From: Thiomonas sp. | GTDB taxonomy: Bacteria; Pseudomonadota; Gammaproteobacteria; Burkholderiales; Burkholderiaceae | Assembly (NCBI GenBank): GCA_027443745.1 | Contig: DAIAZB010000193.1 | Location: 1 to 11,533, forward strand | Direction of reading: 5' to 3' | Length of the DNA stretch: 11,533 bases | Program-made: the position numbers and the translations under genes | Notes under the pieces: model-generated | The model's input: the letters and a program-made list of their open reading frames with translations, nothing else | What the model was told of the DNA's origin: nothing | The model's database searches: none | Shown: positions 1 through 11,434 of the stretch, in pieces | Position numbering within the stretch: position 1 is the stretch's first letter | How the letters are laid out: the number at the start of each line of letters is the position of its first letter

Positions 1-1
1 T

Positions 2-175
2 CCCTGGCTGACGTTCTTCACCATCGGCAAGCCGATCTCGGGCATCGTGTGCCTGATCCTCCAGCTCACGCTGATCGGCTGGATTCCGGCCACGATCTGG
101 GCCGTCTACGCACTGAGCCAATACAAGACCGACCAGAAGATTGCCAAGGCGTTGGCCGACCGGCGGAGCATCTGA
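2..175 (+). CDS. YqaE/Pmp3-like small membrane protein (5' end missing)
   Basis: The reading frame is open from the window edge and gives 57 residues plus a stop; the start codon lies upstream. It reads as one amphipathic segment followed by a strong hydrophobic stretch (GIVCLILQLTLIGWIPATIW), then a basic tail ending in ADRRSI. The LIGWIPATIWAVYAL part matches the second membrane helix of Pmp3/YqaE proteolipids, which in this form are common in integrative elements, where the tail reads YKTDQKI as here. These proteins sit in the inner membrane and their role in bacteria is poorly known. The stop overlaps the next start (TGATG), so the two are probably translationally coupled. Family assignment rests on recognition of the hydrophobic pattern. 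Confidence 0.65.
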   Translation, partial: PWLTFFTIGKPISGIVCLILQLTLIGWIPATIWAVYALSQYKTDQKIAKALADRRSI

Positions 176-468
176 TGCACACCAACGACCTGATCATGGC
201 CCAGCAGGTCATCGCGATGGCACGCATTGGCCTGCTGCCGACGCAGGAGGCTTCCGGGCGTGCGCTGGCGGCGATCAACGCCGCTCAGGAAGACCTCAGA
301 CGCTGCGGGCGCAGTGCGCTGGATCTCGATTCTGCGCGAACCGCCGCATCCGTTCTGGCGCTTGGCCACCGCCCGCACAAAAGCATGTGCATCGCCGCGG
401 TGCAATCCATTGCCGCTGTGCTGATGCGCGCGCCACAAAATGTCGATATAGAGGAGCTCCATCCGTGA
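175..468 (+). CDS. Hypothetical protein of 97 aa in the element operon
   Basis: I do not recognise a family. The start ATG at 175 overlaps the stop of the preceding gene (TGATG), and its own stop overlaps the GTG start of the next gene, so it is a middle member of a tightly packed operon. The protein is soluble and mostly helical in character: Ala-rich, with AAINAAQEDLRR and two segments rich in Ala, Val, Ile and Leu (IAMARIGLLP, AAVQSIAAVLM) too short or too polar for clear membrane helices. There is no signal peptide. An in-frame extension back to 49 exists but would lie inside the Pmp3-like gene, so I chose 175. Coupled overlaps on both sides make it very likely real despite the lack of a known function. 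Confidence 0.7.
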   Translation: MHTNDLIMAQQVIAMARIGLLPTQEASGRALAAINAAQEDLRRCGRSALDLDSARTAASVLALGHRPHKSMCIAAVQSIAAVLMRAPQNVDIEELHP

Positions 469-1190
469 GGTGGCCCCCAGTTTTGTTGATGCTGGCACTT
501 GCTGCCCCGCTCGTGGCTGGCTGCGAGCGACATGACTCCGCCACGCTCGGCCGCATCGCTGAGCACGCTGCGGGTTATGCGCTCGGTGGCGTCGCTGCCC
601 ACGAGAGCGAACGCTACCTTGACCATAGGGCCAGCGGCCAGTCCTACGAACGACAGCTTGGCGACGGCCAGGACATCCAGCATTCCGGCCGCATGGGCCT
701 GGTGTTTCCGGAGGCTGATGCGCTGCCAAACCCGCGGCTGACCCCGGGCGCGTTGAATTCCGCGGTCACGCAGACCAATCTGCGCGAAACAATCTGCCGC
801 CCGGGCGGATACACCCGATCGATCCGGCCTGACGAGCACTACACGGAGAACCTCAAACGCAAGGGTGTTCGCCAATACGGCTACCCGCGGCAGATGGGCA
901 AGGACGCATTCATGCTGCGCAACTACGAAGAGGATCACCTCATCAGCCTGGAGCTCGGCGGCTCGCCGGACAGTCCCCAGAACCTCTGGCCCGAACCGCA
1001 CCACGTCATTGGCGGCTGGGGAAGCTACGCCAAGGACAAACTGGAGAACCGGTTGCACAGCATGGTCTGCCGCAGGCGGATCAGTCTGAAGCAGGCCCAG
1101 CATGCCATCGCCACCAACTGGATTGCGGCCTACAAGCAGTACGTCGGTGCGACGCCGGATCAAGGTCGCTCACATCGATATGGTGGGTGA
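465..1190 (+). CDS. Lipoprotein with an HNH-like nuclease motif
   Basis: This 241-aa protein starts at GTG 465, overlapping the previous stop, with GAGGAG 8 bases upstream as ribosome binding site. Residues 1-20 form a signal peptide ending in a lipobox (LVAGC, Cys20), so the mature protein is predicted to be lipid-anchored in the envelope. Residues 21-85 look like a poorly conserved linker. From about residue 92 (LTPGALN) to 202 there is a compact domain seen in many secreted bacterial proteins: paired Cys111 and Cys202, then EEDHLISLELGG (155-166) and NLWPEP (173-178). The DH at 157-158 followed by N173 resembles an HNH/His-Me finger arrangement, and nuclease activity is inferred from that. 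It could act on DNA during conjugative transfer or on the envelope; the sequence does not decide. An upstream in-frame ATG at 141 would read through two other genes and is rejected. Confidence 0.7.
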   Translation: MRWPPVLLMLALAAPLVAGCERHDSATLGRIAEHAAGYALGGVAAHESERYLDHRASGQSYERQLGDGQDIQHSGRMGLVFPEADALPNPRLTPGALNSAVTQTNLRETICRPGGYTRSIRPDEHYTENLKRKGVRQYGYPRQMGKDAFMLRNYEEDHLISLELGGSPDSPQNLWPEPHHVIGGWGSYAKDKLENRLHSMVCRRRISLKQAQHAIATNWIAAYKQYVGATPDQGRSHRYGG

Positions 1191-1191
1191 A

Positions 1192-1431
1192 ATGTCCACG
1201 ATCATCACCGCCCTCGACGTCGCCTTCACTGCCCTCTCGATCGTGGGCAATGAATTCATCAAGCGCCGCAACCGGCGCGGCTACTGGTTCTGGCTGGCCG
1301 GCAATAGCCTCGGGCTGACCGCGTTCGTGTTGCAGCACCAGTGGATCACGGCGCTCTTGTATGTGTATTTCACCGTGTCCTGCGTCCAGGGGCTTCGGCA
1401 CTGGGCGCGCGCGGAGGTGGTCCATGGCTGA
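1192..1431 (+). CDS. Small PnuC-like membrane protein
   Basis: A 79-aa protein starting at ATG 1192, four bases after a GGTGGG that could serve as ribosome binding site; an alternative ATG at 1180 would overlap the previous gene and add four residues. It has about three hydrophobic segments: ALDVAFTALSIVGNEFI, WFWLAGNSLGLTAFVL and ITALLYVYFTVSCVQGL. The pattern GN-x4-RRNRRGYWFW and the final YxxFTxxxxQGLRHW resemble one half of the nicotinamide-ribonucleoside/NMN transporter PnuC, which is normally above 200 aa. At this length it could work only as a dimer or oligomer, like half-size transporters. It follows the HNH-like lipoprotein directly and precedes the AlpA-like gene. The membrane nature is seen; the PnuC link is recognition by pattern and less certain. 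Confidence 0.5.
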   Translation: MSTIITALDVAFTALSIVGNEFIKRRNRRGYWFWLAGNSLGLTAFVLQHQWITALLYVYFTVSCVQGLRHWARAEVVHG

Positions 1432-1660
1432 CAAGATTCTCGTGACTGCCATCGAAGGCGCTCGCATGCTCTCGATGGGCCGTTCCACATTCTGGCGCGC
1501 CATCGGCGCCGGGATGCTGCCGCAGCCAGTGCGGATTGGCGGGTTATCGGCCTTGGTCAACCAGAGTAGTCTGACCGAGGGACTGCTGTCGACCCGTTCC
1601 AGTCACTTTGGCCAGCGGCGCCCGACGACAGGTTTGCAGCGGAAGTCGTCGTTGAAGTGA
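1424..1660 (+). CDS. AlpA-like helix-turn-helix regulator, C-terminal half altered
   Basis: This 78-aa product starts at ATG 1424, eight bases before the stop of the PnuC-like gene, with GGAGGTGG (1412-1419) as a strong ribosome binding site. Residues 1-43 match the AlpA/MerR-type winged helix: a first helix around IEGARMLSM, a recognition helix GRSTFWRAIGAGMLP, then PQPVRIGG. AlpA proteins act as excisionase-like activators of prophage and island integrases, and such genes often sit near the integrase. The expected next motif (RW-x3) is missing in frame. A shift by one base at about 1550-1570 would read W-S-T-R, and the frame then returns in time for LTEGLLSTRSS, which resembles the usual end. 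This looks like two compensating indels, so the protein may be impaired. The upstream in-frame start at 1361 lies inside the preceding gene. Confidence 0.65.
   Translation: MADKILVTAIEGARMLSMGRSTFWRAIGAGMLPQPVRIGGLSALVNQSSLTEGLLSTRSSHFGQRRPTTGLQRKSSLK
1520..1542 (+). repeat. Direct repeat copy 1, inside the AlpA-like gene
   Basis: This 23-base stretch encodes the PQPVRIGG part of the AlpA-like protein. It recurs at 5183-5205 in the same orientation with two mismatches (the 9th and 18th bases), in both places in a frame that reads PQPVRIGG. The pair brackets the ubiquitin-like and XRE/ImmA cargo. Common ancestry as alpA sequence is the likely reason for the match; whether it also marks an insertion junction is inference. 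Confidence 0.6.
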
Positions 1661-1809
1661 CTGTCCGCGGCATGTCTAGTCGTAGGCGCCGCATTGGTTC
1701 GGCTCTCCATTCGTTGCAGACTGACTTGTTCAATCGAGCATAAGTCGGTCCAATGGGACAACAGTGCGCCGACGCCCCATCGCTGCCAGTGACACAGGTA
1801 CCTGTTGAT

Positions 1810-2211
1810 TCACCACAGCTTTGAAACCAGCCAGCGGCAAAGTTGCCGGATCCAACTGATCTTCGGTGGCGTTCTGTATTCAGCACGTACGTCGGCGCGA
1901 TCGCGTGCTCGCGCCATCGCAGTTAGCTCGGGCGTCATCACCCCAGCCCACTCGACGCAGTTATTGGTGATGACATAGTGGGATTTGCAGGGGGCGTTCG
2001 AATTGCCGATCGAAGGCCAGAGCGATGCGCGGTCGCCTTCCTTCGTCAGGCTCCATTTTGCTGGCTTCAGCGATGTGACGATCTTGGTGCCACACCCGCA
2101 GCAGCAAAGATGTGCCGCCATCGAGAACGGCTCGGAGATGTAGAGCACACCCTCCTCGAGTTGAGGCGGGAAGCGCTCTACGTATTCTGGAACGATGGCG
2201 TAGCGTTTCAA
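1810..2211 (-). CDS. DUF6527-type Cys/His-rich protein, third gene of the ubiquitin-like operon
   Basis: The product is 133 aa if it starts at the TTG whose last bases overlap the E1-like stop (TTGA at 2211-2208). The reading frame is open further upstream to an ATG at 2307, but that part is Arg/His-rich, overlaps the E1 gene and does not look like protein, whereas MKRYAIVPEYVERFPPQLEE fits the family start. Residues 34-40 read HLCCCGC, residues 65-80 read WPSIGNSNAPCKSHYV, and the tail is basic and Trp-rich (WIRQLCRWLVSKLW). The cysteines at 36-40 with Cys75 and His78 look like a metal site. DUF6527 proteins are recurrent partners of bacterial Multi_ubiq and ThiF genes; their biochemical role is not known to me. 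A metal-binding adaptor or ligase-like part is speculation. Overlap with the E1 gene implies translational coupling. Confidence 0.75.
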   Translation of the reverse strand: MKRYAIVPEYVERFPPQLEEGVLYISEPFSMAAHLCCCGCGTKIVTSLKPAKWSLTKEGDRASLWPSIGNSNAPCKSHYVITNNCVEWAGVMTPELTAMARARDRADVRAEYRTPPKISWIRQLCRWLVSKLW

Positions 2212-3404
2212 GCGAGGTTCATGCGCGTGATGGTGCCGGTGGCGACGCGGTAGATCGCATGGTATTCGCAGCCGTCGTCGACGTAGAAGCCGCAGAACTT
2301 CTTCCAACGGACTACCGCCATGAGTGCGCTCAGCGCATTGAGCTCGGCGATCTGAATATTCGTCGAATAGAGATCATCCTCCTCCGGCCTATCGGCTAGC
2401 GACGCTCGGTCTGGCAAATGATCATGGCGGTCCGGTGTGCCGAGCGTTACCCGAACCTGGCCGCCCAGTTGGTCACCTTTGCCCTTGTGGACTCCAATGC
2501 CGGTATCGACGTAGGGAACACGCAGCGTGTGCAGCGCGTCGGTGATGATCTTGCGCACGCTGCCGCGGTCGACGCAGATAAAGACGAAGTCGAAGTCGGT
2601 GAGCTCGTGTACCGAGACATCATCGAGATAGTAGGGGTGCTGGATGATGTGCCGATGCATCTTCGAGTAAACGTTGCCGAAGTACTCGACTTTCATCGGC
2701 GCGGTGAGATCTCCCAGGCCGGGCGCCCCAGGCGAGCGAAAAGCGTTGTGCTGGATGAAGCGGTCGCCATCGAATAGGTGGATTTCGCGGACTGGTGTCT
2801 TAGCGATAGCGTCCAGGACATAGGACCCAGTGCCGCCAAGGCCGACGATCGCTACGCGCTTCATGGCGAGTTTCTCCGACGCGCTGGCGATGCCAGCCCG
2901 CGACGTAGCCGTGTTTGAGTAATGAAACACTGAATCGTCGAACTCTTCGGGCACGGGCTTGTAGACCCTTGCGGTCACACCCGGCTCGATGGCGGTAGCC
3001 GGTGCGCTAACCAGGTTGATGTAGCGCACGAACTTTTCGTAGTAGTCCTTGTACGGAACATTGTTTCGCGGCTTGACCGAAAAGCTGTGATTCACAGTGA
3101 TGTTGTCTCCCTTCGACTCCGTCACCGACTGGTGCTGAACGTCCGTAAGGGTAGAGCCGTCGGAGTTGCACGGATGCTCACCGATGAACCAGGTCTGGTG
3201 GTTCACGACCGGGCTAATCGTCCGTTCGCCATTGAGCTCTAACGGAGCGTAGAGAGTGCCGCGGCAGACTTGGATTTGCGAATTGACGTAGGGGACGTCA
3301 TGCACCAGGAGGTGGGTGCCTGCGCCGCGGAGGACCTCGACCGTGTAGCCCTCCCGGCGCAGTCGCGCCAGGTCCTCATTAAGAGCGATCAGCGTTGTCG
3401 ACAT
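2208..3404 (-). CDS. ThiF/E1-like adenylyltransferase with N-terminal DUF6791-type domain
   Basis: This 398-aa protein is expected to adenylate the C-terminus of the adjacent ubiquitin-like protein. Residues 1-150 form an N-terminal domain of the DUF6791 type, with HLLVHDVPYVN (31-41), CRGTLYAPLEL (47-57) and WFIGEHPC (72-79). Residues 180-370 are a ThiF/MoeB Rossmann domain: nucleotide loop GLGGTG (188-193), FDGD (211-214), Arg223, Lys238 and the aspartate in CVD (277-279). The last part, NIQIAELNALSALMAVVRWKK (349-369, with one residue more than shown in common family motifs), is typical of this E1 subgroup. No cysteine lies between Cys277 and Cys371, so the usual catalytic-cysteine loop lacks one. 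I chose ATG 3404, overlapping the upstream gene by 26 bases, over 3455, since MSTTLIALNE begins the recognisable domain. The assignment to ThiF is firm; the target of conjugation is unknown. Confidence 0.85.
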   Translation of the reverse strand: MSTTLIALNEDLARLRREGYTVEVLRGAGTHLLVHDVPYVNSQIQVCRGTLYAPLELNGERTISPVVNHQTWFIGEHPCNSDGSTLTDVQHQSVTESKGDNITVNHSFSVKPRNNVPYKDYYEKFVRYINLVSAPATAIEPGVTARVYKPVPEEFDDSVFHYSNTATSRAGIASASEKLAMKRVAIVGLGGTGSYVLDAIAKTPVREIHLFDGDRFIQHNAFRSPGAPGLGDLTAPMKVEYFGNVYSKMHRHIIQHPYYLDDVSVHELTDFDFVFICVDRGSVRKIITDALHTLRVPYVDTGIGVHKGKGDQLGGQVRVTLGTPDRHDHLPDRASLADRPEEDDLYSTNIQIAELNALSALMAVVRWKKFCGFYVDDGCEYHAIYRVATGTITRMNLA

Positions 3405-3654
3405 CGAACACCATCCCGTTGCGAATTTCGACCTTGTCACCCTTGTCGAGCACATACTCCTGTGGCTCGTGCTCGTAGTGGTATAGCACGCTGTAGACGA
3501 TGCGATCGCCGAACGGGCCGTCAGGGAAGGCCAACTTGACGACCTCGTGAAAAGTCAGGAACTTGCCGTCGACGTTCTTTTCCACGGTGTTGACGTACAC
3601 CTTGTGCTGCTCTGGTCGGAGGGTTTCGGCCGTCTCTGTAACTGCTTGGTTCAT
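3379..3654 (-). CDS. Multi_ubiq-type ubiquitin-like protein (single domain)
   Basis: A 91-aa protein, first gene of the minus-strand operon. After a polar leader of about 17 residues it shows one ubiquitin-like (beta-grasp) unit of the Multi_ubiq kind: KVYVNTVEKNV as first hairpin, LTFHEVVKLAF as the helix, a middle strand YSVLYHYE, and the diagnostic end GDKVEIRNGMVFDV. Members often carry two or more tandem copies; this one has a single copy. It ends in DNADRS and has no terminal Gly-Gly. The start ATG 3654 has only a weak GAAGAAAG ribosome binding site about 8 bases upstream. The last 26 bases overlap the E1-like gene. It is inferred to be the modifier that the E1-like enzyme activates. 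Family assignment is by the C-terminal motif and operon context. Confidence 0.8.
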   Translation of the reverse strand: MNQAVTETAETLRPEQHKVYVNTVEKNVDGKFLTFHEVVKLAFPDGPFGDRIVYSVLYHYEHEPQEYVLDKGDKVEIRNGMVFDVDNADRS

Positions 3655-3748
3655 GGTTGGACTTTCTTCGCTCTGCGACGCTGCCGGCCAGAGACACGCA
3701 GAGATCGTCTTCCACCGTACGCCAAAAGTTCGCTATAGGCGCACTTTA

Positions 3749-3777
3749 AGTATGAAGAAATAGAATCTCCTTGTCAA
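3749..3777 (-). promoter_or_regulatory. Predicted sigma70 promoter of the ubiquitin-like operon
   Basis: On the minus strand a perfect TTGACA (3777-3772) is followed after exactly 17 bases by CATACT (3754-3749), four of six matches to the -10 consensus. Transcription would begin near 3742, leaving a leader of roughly 88 bases before the UBL start at 3654. It lies in an AT-rich patch unlike the neighbouring genes. Not tested. Confidence 0.55.
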
Positions 3778-3799
3778 GCACAAAAAGTACGTCTACTCT
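3771..3799 (+). promoter_or_regulatory. Predicted promoter and operator of the XRE gene
   Basis: TTGTCA (3771-3776) and TACTCT (3794-3799) are spaced by 17 bases on the + strand, so the two -35 boxes of the divergent promoters lie on the same bases. Across the -10 box sits AGTA-CGTC-TACT (3786-3797), a short inverted repeat that could be the XRE operator. A protein bound here would touch both promoters. The -10 match is weak, so this is a tentative call. Confidence 0.35.
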
Positions 3800-3834
3800 G
3801 AACACAATTCCCACAATCTAACGGAGTTCAACTG

Positions 3835-4155
3835 TTGGCCACCCCTCTCGGCGAAAAAATTCGCGCTGAACGCAAGCGCCTCAAACTGACGCTGGACCAG
3901 CTCGCGGAGCGCACCGACTCCAGCAAGTCCTACATCTGGGAACTTGAAAACCGCCCGGTCGTGCGACCCTCGGCCGAGAAGATGAAGCGCGTCGCCGACG
4001 CGCTAGGCATGACCGTCGAGTTCCTGATCGACGCGGACAAGACCGAGATGACAAAGTCCGACGCCGACGAAGTGTTCTTCCGCAAGATTGGCCAACTCGA
4101 CCCCGCGAAGCGCAAACAGTTGGAATACTTCCTTAAAGCCATCGAAGATGATTGA
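3835..4155 (+). CDS. XRE-family transcriptional regulator paired with the metallopeptidase
   Basis: This 106-aa protein starts at TTG 3835, nine bases after the ribosome binding site ACGGAG (3821-3826); no ATG start precedes the domain. Residues 7-62 form a Cro/CI-type helix-turn-helix: GEKIRAERKRLKLTLDQLAE, then the recognition helix DSSKSYIWELEN and a third helix at AEKMKRVADALGMTVEFLI. The C-terminal 40 residues (LDPAKRKQLEYFLKAIEDD) are a short helical dimer or substrate tail. Its stop overlaps the start of the ImmA/IrrE-type gene by eight bases, the classic repressor and anti-repressor protease pair. It is divergent from the ubiquitin-like operon and is likely its repressor as well as its own. 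DNA binding is family knowledge; the target is inferred from position. Confidence 0.88.
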   Translation: MATPLGEKIRAERKRLKLTLDQLAERTDSSKSYIWELENRPVVRPSAEKMKRVADALGMTVEFLIDADKTEMTKSDADEVFFRKIGQLDPAKRKQLEYFLKAIEDD

Positions 4156-5005
4156 TACGAAGACGCCGTCCGGCTGGGGCATCCAGCTTTCGAAACTATG
4201 GATGCAGAGCAGCATGCCGTTTCCAGTCGATGTCTGCGAACTTGCACAGGTGTTCAGCAAGCAGCGCTTCTCCGACCCGGTCGGCCTCATCCGCCCGCAC
4301 GGCATCGCCGGCATTGACGGCATGCTGTCGCGTCGCAAGAGCAAGGGCGACTGGTGCATCTCTTATGACGAGCAGGTCAGCTCGCCCGGACGCATCAACT
4401 TTACGTTGGCGCACGAATTGGGCCACTACCTGCTGCACCGGACGCTGCGCGAGCGGTTTTCCTGCGGCCAGGGAGACGTGCTCTCTTCCTCGGACGCCGA
4501 TGAAAAGCGGATCGAGAGGGAGGCCAATATCTTCGCCTCCTACCTGCTGATGCCGGCCAATGATTTCCGTTCATTCACCGACGGCAATCCGGTCAGTATT
4601 GAACTGCTGAGCGCCTGCGCCGAGCGCTACGGCACGTCGCTGACGGCCGCGGCCCTCAAATTCATTGAGCTTACTGATGAGGCGGCCATGCTTGTGATGG
4701 CGACCGACGGCTTCGTTTGCTGGAGTGCGCCCAGCCGGCTCGCCCGTCGTGCTCGCGCATACCTACCACCCGGCACACCGCTGCCCGTGAGCGCGGAGGA
4801 AGGTGCGCCGGACGGACGCATGGCGGGGCGCGGTATTTGGCACCCGAGTTGCGAGGCGCAGGAGTTCACACTCACATCGGACCAGTACGACATGTCGATC
4901 TTCCTGATCCGTCTGCTCGATGTGCGCCACGTCGTCCATGAAGACGAGGAAGTGCAGGATTCGTACGGTTTCATGACCGAGCGATTAGGCGGCAGCCCGA
5001 GCTAG
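4148..5005 (+). CDS. ImmA/IrrE-type zinc metallopeptidase
   Basis: A 285-aa protein starting at ATG 4148, overlapping the XRE stop. The zinc-peptidase motif HELGH is at residues 89-93 within FTLAHELGHYLLH, and the third ligand is likely Glu125 in EREANIFASYLLMP (123-136). Residues 28-80 are the usual lead-in with VDVCELAQVF and CISYDE. The C-terminal 110 residues, from about 175 (ELTDEAAMLVM) on, are less conserved and may sense a signal or bind the repressor. ImmA of ICEBs1 and its relatives cleave a cognate XRE repressor and so induce the genes it silences. Here the neighbour is exactly such a repressor, and the divergent genes are the ubiquitin-like operon. An upstream ATG at 4088 lies inside the XRE gene and adds no domain residues, so I rejected it. 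Confidence 0.85.
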   Translation: MIDTKTPSGWGIQLSKLWMQSSMPFPVDVCELAQVFSKQRFSDPVGLIRPHGIAGIDGMLSRRKSKGDWCISYDEQVSSPGRINFTLAHELGHYLLHRTLRERFSCGQGDVLSSSDADEKRIEREANIFASYLLMPANDFRSFTDGNPVSIELLSACAERYGTSLTAAALKFIELTDEAAMLVMATDGFVCWSAPSRLARRARAYLPPGTPLPVSAEEGAPDGRMAGRGIWHPSCEAQEFTLTSDQYDMSIFLIRLLDVRHVVHEDEEVQDSYGFMTERLGGSPS

Positions 5006-5167
5006 ACACGCAGGAAGCAGGCGCCCCGTGGGACTTTCAGTGCTTAGTGACGGCTATCGATCACCAGCCAGTGACAGCACCCGGCCTCGGCCAAAAGCGG
5101 TCCGTCACCTGTTCGCGTAAGCTGCCTTCCGAGCAACCGCGCAGCTCTAAAACCGGCCGGACGGTCT

Positions 5168-5245
5168 ATGAGTGCTCATCGGCCGCAGCCCGTGCGGATC
5201 GGCGGTCTCACGCGAGGTCGGGTGGCCGAGCTGATTCGCGCTGTC
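5168..5245 (+). pseudogene. Remnant of a second AlpA-like gene beside the integrase
   Basis: The + strand here reads RPQPVRIGGLTRGRVAELI in one open frame, close to the end of AlpA proteins (PVRIGG-LTR-W-R-x3-E); the usual Trp is Gly here. No helix-turn-helix part precedes it, so only the C-terminal third is present. The last part overlaps the 3' end of the integrase on the opposite strand, so part of the likeness may be chance. It is probably not a functional gene. The 202-base gap between the metallopeptidase and the integrase holds nothing else I recognise. Confidence 0.35.
5183..5205 (+). repeat. Direct repeat copy 2, in the AlpA-like remnant
   Basis: This 23-base stretch matches 1520-1542 at 21 positions in the same orientation and is also read as PQPVRIGG. 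It lies three bases before the integrase stop codon. Together with copy 1 it brackets about 3.6 kb that holds all five cargo genes. Confidence 0.6.
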
Positions 5246-6386
5246 GGTCCAACCAGGCCGCCCACCACTGCATCAGCTCCCGGCGCTGATCGAGATACTG
5301 CGCACGGTTGTATGCGGCCCGTACCGCGTCAGTCTCACGGTGCGCGAGCTGGCGTTCGATGACATCGTGCGCAAAGCCAGACTGCTCATTGAGCACCGTG
5401 GACGCCAGAGCCCGGAATCCATGCGCCGTCATCCGACCTCGATAGCCCAGTCGGTAAAGCGCGAACAGGAAGGTATTCTCCGACAGCGGATGCCCCGGGC
5501 GTAGCGGTGAATCCAGCGCCAGATCGCGATCGCCGGTAAACACCCGGAGTTGTTCGAGCACCGCTCGCGCCTGCTGTGACAGCGGCACGACGTGCGGCAA
5601 TCCCGCCTTCATGCGCTCCTCGGGAACCACCCAGACCGCGCCGTCCTCGCGCAGCTCAGCCCACCGCATGCCGCGCAACTCGCCGACGCGCACGAAGGTC
5701 AAGGCCAGCAACTGCAGCCCCAGGCGGGTGACCTGTTCTTCATAACTGTCGATCGCCGCGAGCAATCCACCTGCCTCGCCAGGCGGGATGCTGGCCATCG
5801 GCTTTTTCACCTTGCGCGGCTGCAGCACCCGCACCAACCCGGCGGCACCGTGGCTCTCGATGTAACCAACGTCCTGCGCGTAATCGAACACCGCGGCGAT
5901 ACGCCCGGCCACCCGGTGCGCGGTTTCCACACGACCGCCCTTCTGAACGGCCTGCACCACCTCGACGAGCTTCGTGCGGGGAATCTGGTCGATCGGCAGC
6001 GAACCAATCGCGGGGAACGCGAAGCGTTCCAGCGTCCCGGCAACCTGCCCCTGGTGCTTCCCGTTGGACAGGGATGGCAGCTTGATCTTGAGCCAATGTT
6101 CCGTGATCGCCTTGAACGTCGGTGCGACCTTCGAGGGTGGCGTGGCGGTCGCTGCGTCGGTCGGCGCGCTCTTGGCCTGAGCATGCGCAGCGCGGGCCTG
6201 CGCCAGAGTCATGCCCGGGTAGCGGCCATAGGTCCGTGTGCGCTGTTTGCCGTTCTGCGCATAGTTGGCGCGCCAGCTCTTCAGCCCGGTGGGTGCCACA
6301 AATAGGTACAGGCCACCGCCGTCGGTGAGTTTGTAGGGCCGCTCCTGCGGCTTGGCTGCCTCGACAGCCTTCACGGTGAGACTCAT
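5208..6386 (-). CDS. P4-type tyrosine recombinase (island integrase)
   Basis: This 392-aa protein integrates and excises the element at a tRNA gene. Residues 1-70 form the N-terminal DUF4102 arm-binding domain (LTDGGGLYLFVAPTG, 20-34; YGRYPGMTLAQAR, 53-65). Residues 90-180 are the core-binding SAM-like domain. The catalytic domain follows with Arg233 in FVRVGELRG, Lys260, His322 and Arg325 in HGFR, His349 in LAHR, and the nucleophile Tyr359 in AAYNR; all expected residues are present, so the enzyme looks active. The ending QYLDQRRELMQWWAAWLD is typical of the P4 group. ATG 6386 has AAGGG about 9 bases upstream. The gene starts 160 bases from the tRNA-Ser 3' end and points away from it, as expected for islands inserted there. 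Confidence 0.93.
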   Translation of the reverse strand: MSLTVKAVEAAKPQERPYKLTDGGGLYLFVAPTGLKSWRANYAQNGKQRTRTYGRYPGMTLAQARAAHAQAKSAPTDAATATPPSKVAPTFKAITEHWLKIKLPSLSNGKHQGQVAGTLERFAFPAIGSLPIDQIPRTKLVEVVQAVQKGGRVETAHRVAGRIAAVFDYAQDVGYIESHGAAGLVRVLQPRKVKKPMASIPPGEAGGLLAAIDSYEEQVTRLGLQLLALTFVRVGELRGMRWAELREDGAVWVVPEERMKAGLPHVVPLSQQARAVLEQLRVFTGDRDLALDSPLRPGHPLSENTFLFALYRLGYRGRMTAHGFRALASTVLNEQSGFAHDVIERQLAHRETDAVRAAYNRAQYLDQRRELMQWWAAWLDRQRESARPPDLA

Positions 6387-6448
6387 GGTATCGCCCTTCT
6401 GGATGCCATGGACGATACCACGATTTGCGGCTGGATGGCGTGGTACCG
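6386..6448. promoter_or_regulatory. Three evenly spaced TGGTAYCG sites at the integrase start
   Basis: TGGTATCG occurs at 6386-6393, in inverted orientation at 6413-6420, and as TGGTACCG at 6441-6448. Their centres are 27 and 28 bases apart. The first two form an 8-base-pair hairpin in the integrase mRNA whose loop holds the AAGGG ribosome binding site and whose stem ends at the A of the start codon. Such sites could bind the integrase, an AlpA-type factor, or control translation. The role is inferred; the repeats are seen directly. Confidence 0.4.
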
Positions 6449-6489
6449 CCCCGGATGCAACGGGACGATTATGGACGCGCGCGCCAATG

Positions 6490-6523
6490 AAAAAGCCCCG
6501 CTACAGATTCTGCGCGGGGCTTT
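6490..6523 (-). terminator. Rho-independent terminator after tRNA-Ser
   Basis: A ten-base-pair stem, AAAGCCCCGC against GCGGGGCTTT (6492-6501 and 6514-6523), closes a 12-base loop. Read on the minus strand it is followed by a run of T, so it terminates transcripts coming from the tRNA gene 24 bases upstream. It also shields the integrase from tRNA transcription. It lies on the island side of the presumed attachment site. Confidence 0.75.
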
Positions 6524-6546
6524 GAGGGACTACTTTGGATCAATTC

Positions 6547-6565
6547 TGGCGGAGAGAGGGGGATT
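6547..6565. other. Candidate attachment site (integrase-proximal island end)
   Basis: P4-type integrases commonly recombine within the T arm and 3' end of tRNA genes. Here the 3' end of tRNA-Ser lies 160 bases from the integrase start with no other gene between, so the island boundary should lie in or near these bases. The matching copy at the other end of the island is not in this window, so the exact site cannot be fixed. Confidence 0.4.
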
Positions 6566-6637
6566 CGAACCCCCGAAGGGCTGTTAACCCTTACACGCTT
6601 TCCAGGCGTGCGACTTAAACCGCTCATCCATCTCTCC
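6547..6637 (-). tRNA. tRNA-Ser (anticodon GGA)
   Basis: The minus strand folds as a class II tRNA. The acceptor stem pairs GGAGAGA with TCTCTCC, followed by G and an encoded CCA at 6549-6547. The anticodon stem CACGC/GCGTG holds the loop CTGGAAA, giving anticodon GGA that reads UCC and UCU. A long variable arm (AAGGG-TTAACAG-CCCTT) identifies serine, and the T arm has GGTTCGAATCC. It lies 61 bases downstream of proC on the same strand. Its 3' end faces the integrase, so the end is likely the attachment site of the island, with the gene restored by identical sequence. Confidence 0.95.
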
Positions 6638-6698
6638 AGAGCCCGGCATCGTAGCAGGGCGTATCAGGAGCCCGTGTGCACATTCCGGGCGGCTGCGC

Positions 6699-7511
6699 TC
6701 AGTCGAGGAGGTCGCCGAGTTCGGCAGCGCGACTGGCCGCTGCCTGGAGGGCGGCGTCGAAGGCCTGAGCGGTTTGGTGCTGCGCCAGTGTCTCGAGCGC
6801 GGCGGCTGTGGTGCCGCCTTTGCTGGTGACTTGCTCGCGCAACTGTGTGGGTGAGTGCGGCGACTGGATGGCGAGCGCCGCCGCGCCCGAGAAGGTGCCC
6901 AGCGCCAGGCGCATGGCGGTGTCGGCAGGCAAGCCGAGGCGAACGCCGGCGGCGGCCAAGGCCTCTGCCAGATAGAACACATAGGCCGGACCGGAGCCGG
7001 ACAGTGCTGTCACCGCATCGAGCTGGGCCTCTTGTTCCACCCAGATCAGGCTGCCGGTGGGAGCGAGCAGACGCTCGGCTTCTGTGCGGTCGGTCTGCGT
7101 GCAGGCGGCGTTGGCGTAGAGCCCGGCGATGCCCTGGCCGATGAGTGCGGGGGTGTTGGGCATGGCGCGCACGATGCGCCGCGCCCCGGCCCTCCGCGCG
7201 ATGGCGCCGCAGCGCACGCCGGCCATGATGCTCAGGTGCAGGGCATCGGCCAGATACGGGGCGCACGCCGCGGCGGCCTCGGCAAAACTTTGCGGCTTGA
7301 CAGCCCACACCACCCCTTGCGCCGCGCGTAAATCCGGCCCGGCTTCACCCAGGATGCGCACGCCGAAACGCTGCTGCAGGCTGGCGCGCTGTGCGGCGGA
7401 TGGCTCCAGCACGAGGATGGAGTCAGCCGGCACCCTGGCCTTGAGCAGCCCGCCGATGAGGGCGCCGGCCATGTTGCCGCCACCGATGAAAACGAGGGTT
7501 GATGAGTTCAT
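6699..7511 (-). CDS. proC: Pyrroline-5-carboxylate reductase
   Basis: This 270-aa cytoplasmic enzyme reduces 1-pyrroline-5-carboxylate to L-proline with NAD(P)H, the last step of proline synthesis. The Rossmann start is FIGGGNMAGALIGG (8-21). Next come WAVKPQ (69-74), SIMAGV (94-99) and VRAMPNTPALIGQG (114-127), and the substrate and dimer region SGSGPAYVFYLAEA (171-184). The signature end is QVTSKGGTTAAALE (227-240). Length fits the family (about 270 aa). Start ATG 7511 gives the expected short lead before the first strand; a strong ribosome binding site is not visible. It is transcribed away from the pilus operon and toward tRNA-Ser and marks the chromosomal side of the island junction. Confidence 0.96.
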   Translation of the reverse strand: MNSSTLVFIGGGNMAGALIGGLLKARVPADSILVLEPSAAQRASLQQRFGVRILGEAGPDLRAAQGVVWAVKPQSFAEAAAACAPYLADALHLSIMAGVRCGAIARRAGARRIVRAMPNTPALIGQGIAGLYANAACTQTDRTEAERLLAPTGSLIWVEQEAQLDAVTALSGSGPAYVFYLAEALAAAGVRLGLPADTAMRLALGTFSGAAALAIQSPHSPTQLREQVTSKGGTTAAALETLAQHQTAQAFDAALQAAASRAAELGDLLD

Positions 7512-7894
7512 GCCCGGATTATCGCGGGTGGGTGCTGGCTGTCACGTTCTGCGGCGCATGGCGCGGCTTGCGTGCGGCGCGCACCTGCACCCACCCGTGA
7601 GGAGGGTTGGAGCACCGCGCTCCCCCTCCCAACCTCGCCCACGCGATTGAGAAAAGACGACATGTTGCGCTGCGGGGGAAGCCCTGTGGCCCCCTGCGGA
7701 GACCTGCAAAACGGCTGAGCCGTGTTGCCGATCGGTGCCTGAGCCTGAGCTTGGAAGACAAATGTTTCACGTTGTTACTTCCGTGAATAAATGTATTTCA
7801 TTCGCCGTTCATCAGCCAGATACCACCGTTTATCCAGATTTTCTCGCGCACTCTCGATCACTCCACCAGAATGCGGCACAAGGAGTTTCTGCGC
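7512..7894. other. Divergent intergenic region between proC and pilE
   Basis: This 383-base gap should carry the promoters of both genes. Its proC side is GC-rich and holds a perfect 10-base inverted repeat, GGGTGGGTGC at 7526-7535 and its complement at 7587-7596, and a second partial hairpin around GGTTGG (7607-7612) and CCAACC (7629-7634). The pilE side (about 7760-7850) is clearly AT-richer, as expected for a promoter; TTGTTA (7772-7777) with TATTTC (7794-7799) is the best but weak sigma70 pair. No convincing gene is present. A short minus-strand frame at 7770-7519 is Arg-rich, matches no family I know, and I do not accept it. Confidence 0.5.
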
Positions 7895-8353
7895 ATGAAA
7901 ACCTCTCGTGGTTTCACCCTGATCGAGCTGATGATCGTCGTGGCGATCGTTGCCATCCTCTCGGCCATCGCCCTGCCGGCCTACAACAGTTACGTCACGC
8001 GCAGCAAACTGGCGGAGGCGTTTTCCGGGTTGTCGGGCGCCAGCGTGGCCTTGCAGCAGTATGCCCAGGACAACCGCACGTACGTTCCCACCGCGGCCAG
8101 CCCCAATGTCTGCTCGGCGAACAATGCGCCGACCTCGACAGACTTCACCTTCGCATGCAACCCGGCGCCCACGACGACGCAGTTCACCATCACGGCCACG
8201 GGCATCACCCCCACGCTCATCGGCATGACCTACTCCATCGATCAGAACGGCACCAAGCGCACGCTGAGCGTGCCGTCGTCCGGCGGCTGGTCCAGCAACA
8301 ACGTCGGCAGCAACTCCACCTGCTGGGTACGCGACCAGTCCGGGGACTGCTGA
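7895..8353 (+). CDS. pilE: Type IV pilus minor pilin, PilE-like
   Basis: This 152-aa prepilin starts at ATG 7895 with AAGGAG nine bases upstream; an earlier ATG at 7871 overlaps that site and is rejected. It has a short class I leader, MKTSRG, cleaved before Phe7, then the conserved [16 protein letters not shown] with Glu at mature position 5, an N-terminal helix used for pilus packing. The C-terminal domain has Cys pairs, the last two in [10 protein letters not shown], that probably close the D-loop. Such pilins are processed and methylated by PilD and enter the pilus with the other minor pilins below. It is the first gene of the pilE-fimT-pilV-pilW-pilX-pilY1 operon. It could also be named after a ComP-like pilin; the subfamily cannot be settled here. 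Confidence 0.85.
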
Positions 8354-8354
8354 A

Positions 8355-8861
8355 ATGCGCCGCGCGGCCCGCCCTCTGAACGGTTTCACCCTCATCGAAC
8401 TGCTGGTCACCATCGTGGTGGCGGCCCTGCTGGGCATGCTGGTGGTGCCGAACCTGGTGAGCATGGTGCAGTCCGGCAAGACCTCGGTGTTGGTCAACAA
8501 GTTTCCGCAAGACGTGGCCTGGGCGCGCAACCTGGCGGTGACGTCGCAGCATCCCGTGCAAATCGCGTTGTCCAACGGCAACTGCCAATGGATCGCGACG
8601 GTCAATGGCGGCCCCGCCGTGGCCGAGCACTCCATGACGAATGCGGCAACGCAGTATCCGGGTGTGACCTGCACCATCACGACGAACGCACCGACCACTG
8701 GGAATCTCGACTTCAATTCACAAGGCTTCATCACGGACGGCGTCGGCGGTCCGCCCATCTCGCCCACCATCACCGTGAGCACCGCCAACGGCCAGCAGAC
8801 CTGGACGATGCAGGTGCTCAGCTCGGGCAGCGTCATCCTCAACAGCAACACCGCGTCATGA
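8355..8861 (+). CDS. fimT: Type IV pilus minor pilin FimT/GspH-like
   Basis: A 168-aa pseudopilin starting at ATG 8355, one base after the pilE stop. The leader MRRAARPLNG is cleaved before FTLIELLVTIVVAALLGMLV, with Glu at mature position 5. The following WARNLAVTSQHPVQIAL and the C-terminal GFITDGVGG region match the GspH/FimT fold. FimT primes pilus assembly with the other minor pilins and in some species binds DNA during uptake. Its stop overlaps the pilV start (ATGA), so the two are translationally coupled. Call is firm at family level. Confidence 0.85.
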   Translation: MRRAARPLNGFTLIELLVTIVVAALLGMLVVPNLVSMVQSGKTSVLVNKFPQDVAWARNLAVTSQHPVQIALSNGNCQWIATVNGGPAVAEHSMTNAATQYPGVTCTITTNAPTTGNLDFNSQGFITDGVGGPPISPTITVSTANGQQTWTMQVLSSGSVILNSNTAS

Positions 8862-9400
8862 GCATGCCCTTGTCGTCTTCGTCCATCCGTGCGCGGGCCG
8901 GCCGTCAGGCCGGGCTGTCGCTGATCAGCGTCCTGGTGGCCATCGTCATTTTCAGCCTGGGCATGCTCAGCATCGCGTCCATCTACACCATGGCGGTGCC
9001 GGCCGTGACGGCCAACGAAGCCGCCACCGACACCGCCGCCTTCGGCAACCAGTTCTGGGCGCTGCTGCAGGCCAATCCGGGTCTGGTGGGGCAGCTCGGC
9101 ACCACCACGGCGACAACCTACACCAGCACTAGCGCCCCCAGCGCACCGGCTGTGCTGCAACCCTGGCTGGCCGGCATTTTCGGCCCCGCCGTGTTCACGA
9201 GCGCAACCTATGCCGGCACCCAACAAACCATGCTGCCCAGCGCGAGCGTCACCATCACCCCAGGACCCGGGGCCGACGGCAATGCCTGCACCGCGCCCAC
9301 GCCGACCACCACGCTTTGCGGCATCACGCTCAACATCCAGTGGCAACCCAATTCCACAACCAAGCGGTCGCAGACCTACAACTACCAGGTGGGATTTTGA
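8858..9400 (+). CDS. pilV: Type IV pilus minor pilin PilV-like, with Ser at position 5
   Basis: A 180-aa prepilin starting at ATG 8858, overlapping the fimT stop. A 19-residue basic leader ends in RQAG and is cleaved before LSLISVLVAIVIFSLGMLSI. The pattern from ISVLVAxVIxSLGML onward is PilV/GspI-like. PilV subunits normally have Glu at mature position 5; here the codon reads Ser (AGC), which is unusual. The rest, with Cys98-type pairs in DGNACTAP and TLCGITL, fits a small beta-domain. Gene position after fimT and before pilW matches the known operon order. Role: part of the minor-pilin tip complex that starts the fibre. Confidence 0.8.
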   Translation: MSMPLSSSSIRARAGRQAGLSLISVLVAIVIFSLGMLSIASIYTMAVPAVTANEAATDTAAFGNQFWALLQANPGLVGQLGTTTATTYTSTSAPSAPAVLQPWLAGIFGPAVFTSATYAGTQQTMLPSASVTITPGPGADGNACTAPTPTTTLCGITLNIQWQPNSTTKRSQTYNYQVGF

Positions 9401-9401
9401 G

Positions 9402-10841
9402 ATGAAACAGCCCCCTGACTTGCTGGCCCGTGGAGGCCCGTCCAATGTGCCGGGCCGTTCGGCTGGCGCGATGCGTTCCGCCGCGCATGCCCAGCCCCAC
9501 CCCCCCAATGGGGAGTCAGTTCCTTCGGAGCGGCCGTGCGGAACAGACATGCGCGCCACGCCCCGCCACACCCTGCCCCGCCAGCGCGGTCTGACACTCG
9601 TCGAGCTGATGGTGGCGCTGGTTGCCGCCATCATCTTCTCGCTCTCGGTGCTGTTGGTGCAAATCGCGCTGACCAAGGAAAACGTCAGCATGTCCGACGT
9701 CGGCCAGCGCGACAACCAGTCCCGCGCCGCGCTCGACCTCATCACCCAGGATCTGAGCAATGCCGGCTTCATGCTCGGCGGCGTGCAGTCGCGCTGCAGC
9801 GTGACCATGGCCTACAACGGCAGCATCGGCAGCCAGCCGTTCTTCCAATATCCGGTGTCGGCAGCGTCGCAGCCGCAGCCGCTGCCGACCAGCACCGCCG
9901 CGGGCAGCGGCGCCTACCCCAGCACGACGCCCGATCCCAACGGCTACGGCAGCAACGCACAGTTCACCGACATGCTGTTTTTCACCGGCACCACCAGTGC
10001 CTTGCAGTTGCCGAGCAGCACCAACCCGAATACCTATGTGGTTCAACAAACGTCCACCACCACCGCGCCCGGATCGAATGGCGCCGTCAGTTCCACCGTT
10101 TTGCCACTGCAGTCGGTCACCGGCATCAACTCCGGCGACGGCGCCCTGCTGCGCATGCCTTTGAACGGCAAACTCGTGTGTTTTCGCGTGCCGATTGCCC
10201 ATGTTGGCCCTGGCGGCTCCCCAGCGTCCACCACCATCGACAGCAAAAGCACGCAACTCTTTCCTGGCAGTGGCTACACCGGCTTTCAAGCCCAGATGCA
10301 GGCGGCCGGGGTCTGGCCAGCCTCAGGGCTGGTCAACAGCAACCTGATCGGCTCGCGGCTCACCGACCTTGGCCCGGCTGCCGGCAGCAACCAGCAAACC
10401 GTGGTGTATTACATCGGCAACTACGGTACTGCCGGCACGGCAACCGGCAACTACCCCATGCTGATGCGTGCCGTGATCAATGCGCAGAACGACACGCTGA
10501 CGTCCATCAATCCCGTGGCTGCCGGCGTCGTCAGCCTGCAAGCCCTGTTCGGTGTGGACGAAACCAACTCCGGCAGCGTGACCAACTACCTCACCTGGCC
10601 GGACGTGGTGAGCGGCAAGTACACCGCGAATGTGCGCAGCGTGCTGTTCGCCATCGTCACCAAAACTCTGCAGATCGACCCGAATACGAAGTACCAGGCC
10701 CCAGCCACCATCTCCATCGCCAGTCCCAGCCTTGGCCCTGACGGCTTCACCAGCTACCAAGTGCCGGCCGCCTACGCCCGCAACCACTTCTCCGCCCTCG
10801 AATCCGAAGTTGCCATTCGGAACCAGATATGGCCGCACTGA
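9402..10841 (+). CDS. pilW: Type IV pilus minor pilin PilW-like
   Basis: The pilin body begins RQRG/LTLVELMVALVAAIIFSL with Glu at mature position 5, followed by DNQSRAALDLITQDLSNAGF and, near the end, SLQALFGVD and ANVRSVLFAIV, all as in PilW of type IV pili. Two starts are possible. ATG 9402 is one base after the pilV stop and gives 479 aa with a 63-residue leader, far longer than usual and rich in Pro, Arg and Ala. ATG 9549 gives 430 aa with a 14-residue leader of normal length but has no clear ribosome binding site. I give the coupled start; the 9410-9545 stretch looks like inserted repeat DNA. PilW acts in the minor-pilin complex with PilV and PilX and helps place PilY1. Confidence 0.8.
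   Translation: MKQPPDLLARGGPSNVPGRSAGAMRSAAHAQPHPPNGESVPSERPCGTDMRATPRHTLPRQRGLTLVELMVALVAAIIFSLSVLLVQIALTKENVSMSDVGQRDNQSRAALDLITQDLSNAGFMLGGVQSRCSVTMAYNGSIGSQPFFQYPVSAASQPQPLPTSTAAGSGAYPSTTPDPNGYGSNAQFTDMLFFTGTTSALQLPSSTNPNTYVVQQTSTTTAPGSNGAVSSTVLPLQSVTGINSGDGALLRMPLNGKLVCFRVPIAHVGPGGSPASTTIDSKSTQLFPGSGYTGFQAQMQAAGVWPASGLVNSNLIGSRLTDLGPAAGSNQQTVVYYIGNYGTAGTATGNYPMLMRAVINAQNDTLTSINPVAAGVVSLQALFGVDETNSGSVTNYLTWPDVVSGKYTANVRSVLFAIVTKTLQIDPNTKYQAPATISIASPSLGPDGFTSYQVPAAYARNHFSALESEVAIRNQIWPH
9410..9548. repeat. Repeat-like GC-rich insertion in the pilW leader
   Basis: This stretch codes for no pilin-like sequence and holds small inverted repeats: CCCC-AAT-GGGG (about 9505-9516) and GTTCC with GGAAC (about 9520-9543). 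It lies exactly between the coupled start and the prepilin leader. It resembles the dispersed intergenic repeats of Burkholderiales in composition, but I found no second copy in this window. Confidence 0.35.
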
Positions 10842-11434
10842 ACCGCCGCGCGCGGCGCAAGCCCCAGCAGGGTTTTGTGCTGTTGCTCACCCTCATCACC
10901 CTGCTGGTGCTGCTGTTCGGCGTGCTGTTCACCATGCGCGGCACGCTGCTGCAAACCGCCATGACCGGCAACACCCTGCAGCGCCAGAAAGACGTGCAGG
11001 CCAGCGATCTGGCCTTGCGTCAGGTGCAGCAGGCCATCATCCAGACCGCCAACAGCGCCGGGGACGTGCCGCTGGAAATCGCCGCCACCGGCAAGGCCTG
11101 GTTCTACATCCCGCCGAACACCGGCAGCGTCTGGCCGGTACCGGGCACGGGCACCGCCGCCACCTACTGGCAGAGCTGCCAGGGCAGCGGCACCTGCGAC
11201 ACGGTGGCCAACGTCGCCAAGGTCATCAGCCCCACGCCGCCGCCACTGGCCAATGGCTACACCGCACTCGTCACCGTGGTCCCCACCAACCAGCCGACCG
11301 ACGCCTACAGCTGTGGCAATACAGGCTTCACCGCCACCTATTACGACATCTTCCTGCACCTGCAAGAGGCCAACGCCACCACAGCGGCCACTACTGAAAC
11401 CGTGTTCAAACTCTGCACGCCGACCGCATCATGA
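10829..11434 (+). CDS. pilX: Type IV pilus minor pilin PilX-like
   Basis: A 201-aa protein starting at ATG 10829, overlapping the pilW stop by 13 bases. A basic leader (NRRARRKPQQG) is cleaved before FVLLLTLITLLVLLFGVLFT. It lacks Glu at position 5, as is usual in PilX and its secretion counterpart GspK. The MRGTLLQTAMTGNTLQRQKDV segment following the membrane helix is the PilX N-terminal domain signature (R-x-TxL-Q-x-MTGN). A second part, with Cys pairs in SCQGSGTC and SCGNTG, varies between species. PilX joins PilV and PilW in the tip complex. Its stop overlaps the pilY1 start (ATGA). Confidence 0.85.
   Translation: MAALNRRARRKPQQGFVLLLTLITLLVLLFGVLFTMRGTLLQTAMTGNTLQRQKDVQASDLALRQVQQAIIQTANSAGDVPLEIAATGKAWFYIPPNTGSVWPVPGTGTAATYWQSCQGSGTCDTVANVAKVISPTPPPLANGYTALVTVVPTNQPTDAYSCGNTGFTATYYDIFLHLQEANATTAATTETVFKLCTPTAS

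What the first reader, a model, noticed from the sequence alone, without database searches (positions are those of the whole stretch)
1810..3654. Compact three-gene ubiquitin-like conjugation cassette on a mobile island
A Multi_ubiq-type protein, a ThiF/E1-like enzyme and a DUF6527-type protein are overlapped head to tail on one transcript. No separate E2, E3 or JAB protease gene is present, so either the E1 protein does more than one step or host factors are used. The location in an integrase-bounded island with a regulator pair fits a defence or stress system. Seen: genes, motifs, overlaps. Known: Multi_ubiq, ThiF and DUF6527 genes recur together in bacteria. Inferred: conjugation and defence roles.
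Basis: partly seen in the sequence, partly recalled or inferred. Interest (0 to 1): 0.8.

Follow-up and report, generated by a model that had tools for sequence, protein, structure and literature searches.

The report
Minimal three-gene bacterial ubiquitin-like tagging operon
Three overlapping bacterial genes, near a DNA integrase gene and a divergent regulator pair, encode a ubiquitin-like protein, a ThiF-type enzyme predicted to activate it and a small protein that likely binds zinc; together they would attach the modifier to other proteins, probably after DNA damage, and unlike ubiquitin this modifier ends in serine rather than glycine.

Summary
On the minus strand lie a single-domain Multi_ubiq modifier (3654-3379), a DUF6791-ThiF enzyme (3404-2208) and a DUF6527 protein (2211-1810), opposite a divergent CapH-CapP pair and near an integrase and tRNA-Ser. 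The cassette belongs to the known multi-ubiquitin/"Bub" group. It is a stripped subtype without JAB protease or Prok-E2_E protein, probably the "domain X" variant noted by Iyer et al. 2006.

The trio recurs in bacteria and archaea: Ubl in 78 and DUF6527 in 79 of 80 fetched loci. The Ubl and E1 genes overlap by exactly 26 nt in 86 of 86 junctions, the modifier ends in serine in 85 of 86, and nucleotide patterns suggest selection on that tail. E1 Tyr346 (210 of 212) aligns with the tyrosine mutated in BubCD structure 9eav; no cysteine is fully invariant.

CapH+CapP-like genes lie upstream in 44 of 72 loci. The defence pair IetAS precedes the cassette in 9 of 62. Conjugation, zinc binding and defence are untested; an E2 fold for DUF6791 was sought and not shown.

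The parts
3379..3654 (-). Ubl gene: single-domain Multi_ubiq protein, 91 aa, C-terminus ...FDVDNADRS
   Evidence: PF14452 E 1.7e-8; tail VDNADRS identical in 9 of 9 aligned sequences, window included; profile match to PDB 9cd2 'multi-ubiquitin domain protein', E 2.4e-6
2208..3404 (-). E1-like enzyme, 398 aa (DUF6791 + ThiF)
   Evidence: PF20590 and PF00899; start set by relatives; best Foldseek matches are BubCD chains
2910..3377 (-). DUF6791 domain, residues about 10-165; Cys79 codon at 3168-3170; H69, G75, P78, G83, S109 in 201 of 201
2445..2885 (-). ThiF adenylation domain (Pfam-matched part), residues about 174-320, with G188/G190/G191/G193, D212, D214, R223, K238, D279 in 201 of 201; Tyr346 codon lies beyond at 2367-2369
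3379..3404 (-). 26-nt overlap that encodes both the Ubl tail and the E1 N-terminus
   Evidence: exactly 26 nt in 86 of 86 junctions; both frames carry more information than wobble sites outside the overlap
1810..2211 (-). DUF6527 protein, 133 aa (TTG start), with invariant C36, C38, C40, C75, H78
   Evidence: PF20137 E 8.2e-22; alignment of 30
3749..3777 (-). promoter-like site upstream of the Ubl gene (TTGACA, 17 nt, CATACT)
   Evidence: 10 of 12 consensus matches; 2 sites found in the region against 1.0 expected, so weak
3835..4155 (+). CapH-type XRE repressor, divergent from the cassette
   Evidence: PADLOC capH E 1.8e-23
4148..5005 (+). CapP-type M78 (ImmA/IrrE) protease with HELGH; start ATG at 4148 inferred (ORF runs from 4088)
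   Evidence: PADLOC capP E 2.1e-54; PF06114
5208..6386 (-). tyrosine integrase with arm-binding domain
   Evidence: PF13356, PF22022, PF00589
6547..6637 (-). tRNA-Ser (GGA), probable integration target (inferred from position)
   Evidence: ARAGORN

Best explanation
This is an integrase-linked operon of the multi-ubiquitin (Bub) group beside a CapH-CapP-type regulator pair, whose DUF6791-ThiF enzyme is predicted to adenylate the serine-ended C-terminus of the ubiquitin-like protein and to pass it, likely by itself, to amino groups of target proteins, with the DUF6527 protein likely acting as a zinc-binding partner. Steps: (1) inferred from CapH-CapP systems: in undamaged cells CapH would repress the divergent promoter; (2) inferred: single-stranded DNA from damage or phage replication would activate CapP, which would cut CapH and switch the operon on; (3) the 26-nt overlap is shown, and would couple translation of modifier and enzyme; (4) adenylation rests on an intact ThiF site (motif residues in 201 of 201 relatives) but is untested; (5) transfer inside the fused enzyme, through the Tyr346 region or DUF6791 rather than a separate E2, is inferred from the lack of Prok-E2_E and JAB genes and from the conserved tyrosine; (6) tagging of cell or phage proteins, possibly for breakdown, is inferred, with a hint from the IetAS AAA-protease pair upstream in 9 of 62 relatives.
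Against: No reaction has been shown. Ubls activated by E1-type enzymes normally end in glycine (general knowledge); this one does not. DUF6791 could not be shown to be an E2 fold: hhalign against BubB gave E 0.11, column shuffles reached the score in 4 of 150 and block shuffles in 9 of 100, and with larger alignments the match vanished (E 0.77). Cys79 is missing in 8 of 212 (the five named are L036, L022, L066, P0024, P0079), so a thioester on it cannot be universal. 22 of 72 loci show no CapH/CapP or CapW by my profiles, and the HTH profile is generic. Defence is not demonstrated for Bub operons. No window genome is held, so host factors could not be checked.
Confidence: 0.58

Rival explanations
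1. The E1 activates the Ubl tail but does not tag proteins: as in MccB or PaaA, the ThiF enzyme would modify the C-terminal residues of a carrier to make a small product or an altered Ubl.
Against: BubCD chains match better in Foldseek (E 1.4e-12); the Ubl is a Multi_ubiq family member found as short or two- to three-times longer proteins, and DUF6527 is shared with JAB-type Bub operons.
Confidence: 0.15
2. The Ubl and E1 are active but the conjugating E2 and the deconjugating protease come from the host or from another element.
For: One locus (L062, archaeal) carries a JAB-type E1 and a BubB-like ORF about 2 kb from the cassette.
Against: 0 of 24 cassette genomes gave a Prok-E2_E match (L062's genome was not among them), although the same search finds it on the Bub plasmid; apart from L062, JAB-profile hits in the loci are two weak ones (E 2e-4) near the far ends of L007 and L008. 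E2 families other than PF14462 were not searched for.
Confidence: 0.1
3. A sulphur-carrier or cofactor system of the ThiS/MoaD type.
Against: No Gly-Gly tail; patchy occurrence (7 of 385 alphaproteobacterial genomes, one of them the centre of the sample); on plasmids (108 records with at least 80% of the E1 covered); CapH/CapP-type genes upstream.
Confidence: 0.04
4. Same protein-tagging chemistry, but serving a general DNA-damage response or the mobile element's own upkeep rather than phage defence.
For: CapH+CapP control answers to DNA damage (PMC13373217, passages); relatives are on plasmids and some lie near integrases (7 of the first 108 neighbour ORFs).
Against: Neighbour ORFs include defence families: CapP 21 and IetS 8 of 219 scanned, and IetA 5 of the second 111.
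Confidence: 0.35

Closest known systems
Bub operon (BubA-BubB-BubCD-DUF6527), Citrobacter; PDB 9ea4, 9ea5, 9ea8, 9eae, 9eav; Ye et al. 2026 (cited in PMC13373217; paper itself not held)
   Same: Multi_ubiq modifier, ThiF E1 homologous over its whole length (hhalign E 2e-24), conserved Tyr in the same place, DUF6527 gene last, CapH+CapP/CapW-type control in many cases.
   Different: No JAB domain (PF14464) and no Prok-E2_E (PF14462), both present in the Citrobacter-type operon L081; DUF6791 in their place; modifier ends in Ser, whereas the six stand-alone Bub modifiers read have a Gly at or within four residues of the end; Ubl/E1 overlap 26 nt.
polyUbl operons, row 6e of Iyer et al. 2006 (PMC1779556, passages read)
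   Same: Ubl(s), E1 with 'domain X' in place of JAB in some species, a solo Ubl in one species, and a small metal-binding protein.
   Different: They report an inactive E2/RWD domain and JAB as usual parts; the Ser tail and the 26-nt overlap are not in the passages that I read.
PDB 9cd2, ZDHYS365 multi-ubiquitin domain protein (attributed from memory to Gong et al. 2025; paper not held)
   Same: Its last domain matches the window Ubl (profile E 2.4e-6) and ends ...YVTQTDKS, so the Ser-ended subtype already has one solved modifier.
   Different: Longer, 222 aa; the window has one domain.
CapH+CapP regulators (Lau et al. 2022, cited in PMC13373217)
   Same: Divergent HTH + M78 pair matching both PADLOC models.
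   Different: ssDNA activation and CapH cleavage not tested here.
Bil and CBASS type II E1-E2 systems
   Same: ThiF-like E1 in a putative defence setting.
   Different: PADLOC E1-E2 models match only part of the ThiF region (best E 6.8e-9, residues 193-295).

Membership tests
Bub (JAB-type) | Multi_ubiq-type modifier | tested here: met
   PF14452 E 1.7e-8
Bub (JAB-type) | E1 homologous to BubD, with the conserved Tyr370 | tested here: met
   hhalign E 2e-24 over 235 columns, Y346 facing Y370; Y346 210 of 212, BubD Tyr 11 of 11
Bub (JAB-type) | DUF6527 protein in the operon | tested here: met
   PF20137 in window and in L081
Bub (JAB-type) | JAB protease domain (BubC) | tested here: not met
   DUF6791 at that place; no JAB-profile hit in the window
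Bub (JAB-type) | E2-like BubB (Prok-E2_E) | tested here: not met
   no BubB-profile hit in the window; 0 of 24 cassette genomes
Bub (JAB-type) | modifier with Gly at or near its C-terminus | tested here: not met
   window tail NADRS; Ser last in 85 of 86; 6 of 6 stand-alone JAB-type modifiers have Gly at or within four residues of the end
Bub (JAB-type) | covalent Ubl-target conjugation | not testable with these tools
   needs biochemistry
polyUbl operon, 'domain X' variant (Iyer 2006, row 6e) | E1 with another domain in place of JAB, plus Ubl and metal-binding protein | tested here: inconclusive
   Architecture fits (table text); the figure that defines domain X is not held, and that paper's metal motif is C-x3-C-x35-38-H-x2-C while DUF6527 here reads C36-x3-C40-x34-C75-x2-H78
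CapH+CapP | HTH repressor plus M78 protease gene pair beside a defence-type operon | tested here: met
   PADLOC capH 1.8e-23, capP 2.1e-54
CapH+CapP | ssDNA-activated cleavage of CapH | not testable with these tools
   -
CBASS/Bil E1-E2 | E2 domain with catalytic Cys, or a separate E2, in the operon | tested here: inconclusive
   DUF6791 has Cys79 in 204 of 212, but an E2 fold was not shown
ThiS/MoaD sulphur carriers | Gly-Gly C-terminus | tested here: not met

The most novel reading that the evidence does not exclude
A ubiquitin-type tagging pathway that works without an essential cysteine, without a glycine tail and without E2, E3 or deubiquitinase genes: one enzyme activates a serine-ended modifier and hands it on, through Tyr346, to targets, and in some lineages the tagged proteins go to the co-encoded AAA-subtilisin protease IetAS, which would make it a new bacterial analogue of ubiquitin-proteasome targeting, independent of Pup.
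Probability: 0.12. Interest if true: 0.9.

Novelty: new variant of a known kind. Interest (0 to 1): 0.55.

Why it matters
If the three proteins alone tag targets, this would be about the smallest ubiquitin-like conjugation system that I know of, and a test of whether E1 chemistry can work on a non-glycine tail and without a conserved catalytic cysteine. The exact 26-nt dual-coding junction kept in bacteria and archaea, and the IetAS linkage, give direct handles: edit the tail, the tyrosine or the protease and look for adducts. It also ties another protein-modification cassette to the CapH-CapP damage switch.

Tried and rejected
DUF6791 as an E2/UBC domain: Pfam gave no E2 match at E up to 1; a DUF6791-only profile found nothing convincing among solved structures (best E 0.13, a serine recombinase); hhalign against BubB E 0.11, then E 0.77 with larger alignments, shuffle controls weak. 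DUF6791 as a diverged JAB: hhalign E 0.73 over 5 columns. Cys79 as the obligatory nucleophile: rejected as universal, since natural exceptions exist.

Island ends: no repeat of the region 6380-6660 was found in positions 1-6360 (18-mers, both strands, up to 3 mismatches; only scattered 3-mismatch pairs). No inverted repeat of 8 nt or more in the 3630-3860 promoter region. CapK/CapS: no homologues of the L081 pair in the loci. The PADLOC E1-E2 model PDLC00837 was unspecific (247 of 274 genomes); only three loci looked like true E1-E2 proteins and, after their starts were printed, they were not used further. Phage records: 0 of 50,697; IMG/VR: 4 hits, of which 3 nearly full length. A +1 frameshift or readthrough joining Ubl and E1 was considered from the overlap and not tested. 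Papers: Ye et al. 2026, Gong et al. 2025 and Chambers et al. 2024 are not held, so whether their Bub operons include DUF6791 cassettes, the Ser tail or the overlap is unknown to me. Literature searches. That Bub chemistry goes through an ester intermediate is recalled, was not confirmed, and is not used as evidence.

Rows dropped before counts: L014 (identical contig to L013) and the window; loci with too little upstream sequence (72 kept; 62 kept). In some searches I gave 219 of the 246 neighbour ORFs selected (the nearest six of 200-1300 aa per locus, 41 loci with about 10 kb on both sides): left out were nine long ORFs (860-1281 aa) and all 18 ORFs of three loci (L073, L076, L080), to stay under the residue limit, so 38 loci were scanned. 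These scans list only the 25 commonest families, so rarer families are undercounted (IetA is not among the 25 listed, integrases not among those). L105 is the same locus as L012 and L088 the same as L001; the 86 junctions hold 80 distinct sequences. Protein rows were not de-duplicated.
Full report
What is there. The minus strand of 1810-3654 encodes three overlapping genes: a 91-aa Multi_ubiq protein (3654-3379), a DUF6791-ThiF protein (best start 3404, end 2208) and a DUF6527 protein (best start a TTG at 2211, end 1810), by Pfam matches of E 1.7e-8, 1.1e-48 with 4e-13, and 8.2e-22. Starts were moved inwards because close relatives are about 398 and 133 aa long. Upstream and divergent are an XRE repressor and an M78 protease that match the PADLOC CapH and CapP models (E 1.8e-23 and 2.1e-54). 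Further right are a tyrosine integrase and a tRNA-Ser. G+C is 0.55-0.62 over about 1500-5000 and 0.59-0.70 to the right of that. The far end of the island is outside the window, and no genome is held for it.

How general it is. Of these 80, 78 have the Ubl and 79 the DUF6527 gene, on the same strand and in the same order; the three misses lie at contig ends. A class sample not chosen by similarity agrees: 7 of 385 alphaproteobacterial genomes, one of them the centre of the sample, hold DUF6791, and 7 of 7 have both partners. In the class of G001 only the centre genome itself did, 1 of 274. The Prok-E2_E family of JAB-type Bub operons was over its cut-off in 4 of 274 and 2 of 385. The E1 has a match on 117 of 72,556 plasmid records, 108 of them covering at least 80% of it, on 0 of 50,697 phage records and, nearly full length, in 3 IMG/VR contigs. 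ORFs like the window's integrase are within the fetched stretch in 19 of 81 loci, window included.

The modifier's tail. In JAB-type operons the modifier has a glycine at or near its end: residue 229, where the PDB construct BubA(155-229) stops, is the G of NNG in the plasmid relative, and the six stand-alone modifiers that I read end in TEG (three), or in PG plus one to three residues (three). In the window type the tail is mostly ...FNVTxTDKS: the last residue is Ser in 85 of 86 and Ala in one, and 7 of 86 have any Gly in the last eight. The solved multi-ubiquitin protein 9cd2 ends TQTDKS, so it is of this subtype. The Ubl stop lies 26 nt inside the E1 gene in 86 of 86 junctions (80 distinct sequences). 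Within the overlap the E1 wobble sites, which are Ubl first positions, carry 1.18 bits on average against 0.36 downstream, and the Ubl wobble sites, which are E1 second positions, 0.98 against 0.47 upstream. Both reading frames thus seem to be under selection; the site that makes the terminal residue Ser is T in 79 of 80, where the E1 frame would also allow C. Shared descent of the sequences was not corrected for.

Chemistry. In 201 aligned E1s the adenylation residues (G188, G190, G191, G193, D212, D214, R223, K238, D279; their role is recalled from known ThiF-type enzymes) never vary. Cysteines do: Cys79 of DUF6791 is kept in 196 of 201 (204 of 212 in the larger set) and Cys277 in 185 of 201. 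H69, G75, P78, G83 and S109 are in 201 of 201; in the larger set H69 is in 211, G75 in 212, P78 in 211, G83 in 212 and S109 in 211 of 212. Tyr346 is kept in 200 of 201 and 210 of 212. A profile alignment with BubD (E 2e-24, 235 columns) places it opposite the Tyr370 that was changed to Phe in PDB 9eav; that Tyr is in 11 of 11 BubD sequences. I therefore favour adenylation followed by transfer inside this one enzyme, with Tyr346 important, over a thioester relay; this is inference. Tests of DUF6791 as an E2 or JAB domain did not succeed. DUF6527 keeps a C-x3-C...C-x2-H set that suggests a zinc site; its role is open, and I guess a target- or E1-binding partner because it is the one protein besides Ubl and E1 that both subtypes share.

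Control and company. Among 72 loci with enough upstream sequence, 44 have a CapH+CapP-like pair, 1 CapP only, 5 a CapW-like gene and 22 none of these. Of 50 M78 ORFs counted, 47 are within 3.6 kb upstream (40 divergent, all 47 with HExxH) and 3 elsewhere in 1.32 Mb. PMC13373217 (passages) reports CapW or CapH+CapP at 219 of 544 Bub operons and says that Bub has not been shown to protect against phage; the review PMC12687455 (passages) says that such systems appear to serve mainly in phage defence. Among 219 neighbouring ORFs scanned, PADLOC matched 21 to CapP and, by any one model, 8 to IetS; 5 of the second 111 matched IetA, and 7 of the first 108 matched Pfam's phage integrase. IetA and IetS stand upstream on the same strand in 9 of 62 loci with at least 5.8 kb upstream, in 8 of them with IetS ending 41-590 bp before the Ubl ORF, in Bacteroidota and Acidobacteria, with L016 (Polaromonas) at 2.8 kb. 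Whole-genome background in the class of G004: 2 of 149 genomes have IetS at E 1e-30, and neither of those two IetAS loci has a Ubl cassette in the stretch fetched, which for L144 ends at the contig end 1.8 kb after IetS. So IetAS exists alone and is joined to the cassette in a subset. This invites the idea of tagging followed by breakdown, but the window itself has no IetAS.

Verdict. A real member of a rare, mobile subtype of a known kind. The subtype was noticed in 2006 and, in what I could read, is uncharacterised; the Ser tail, the fixed 26-nt dual-coding junction and the IetAS link were not found in the listings and passages that I could read (searches; the two key Bub papers are not held).

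Noticed in passing
L016, L020, L038, L055, L061, L067, L073, L079, L080 (upstream of the Ubl gene): The defence pair IetA-IetS (AAA ATPase and subtilase) stands upstream on the same strand of the cassette, directly so in all but L016; in L020, L055, L061 and L073 a DUF2188 gene lies between.
   Followed up: partly
L062:10001-15366: An archaeal locus with a window-type cassette and, on the other strand, a JAB-type E1 and a BubB-like ORF about 2 kb away: both subtypes side by side.
   Followed up: no
window 3379-3404 and relatives: The Ubl stop codon in the overlap is TAG in 55, TAA in 24 and TGA in 1 of 80 distinct junctions; the E1 frame (Ser/Asn at codon 9) probably sets this. A +1 frameshift joining Ubl and E1 was not tested.
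   Followed up: partly
L089:4784-5392: A JAB-type Bub operon on a Rhizobium plasmid is followed on the same strand by a ClpP-type protease gene.
   Followed up: no
L083: On a Klebsiella plasmid the cassette lies between a UvrD-type helicase gene and Tn7-like transposition genes.
   Followed up: no
L001 (Burkholderia catarinensis): The CapP-like ORF upstream is only 104 aa, and the locus fell into 'other' in the regulator tally.
   Followed up: no
   Followed up: no
window 1-1660: Left of the cassette: an ORF matching the end of the NMN-transporter family (1102-1431, PF04973 E 2.3e-10) and a weak AlpA-like HTH ORF (1361-1660, E 0.045, below cut-off), as in mobile elements.
   Followed up: no
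window 6699-11434: Right of the tRNA-Ser: a proC-like ORF and a run of type IV pilus minor-pilin-like ORFs, probably host chromosome (named by reading the translations, not searched).
   Followed up: no
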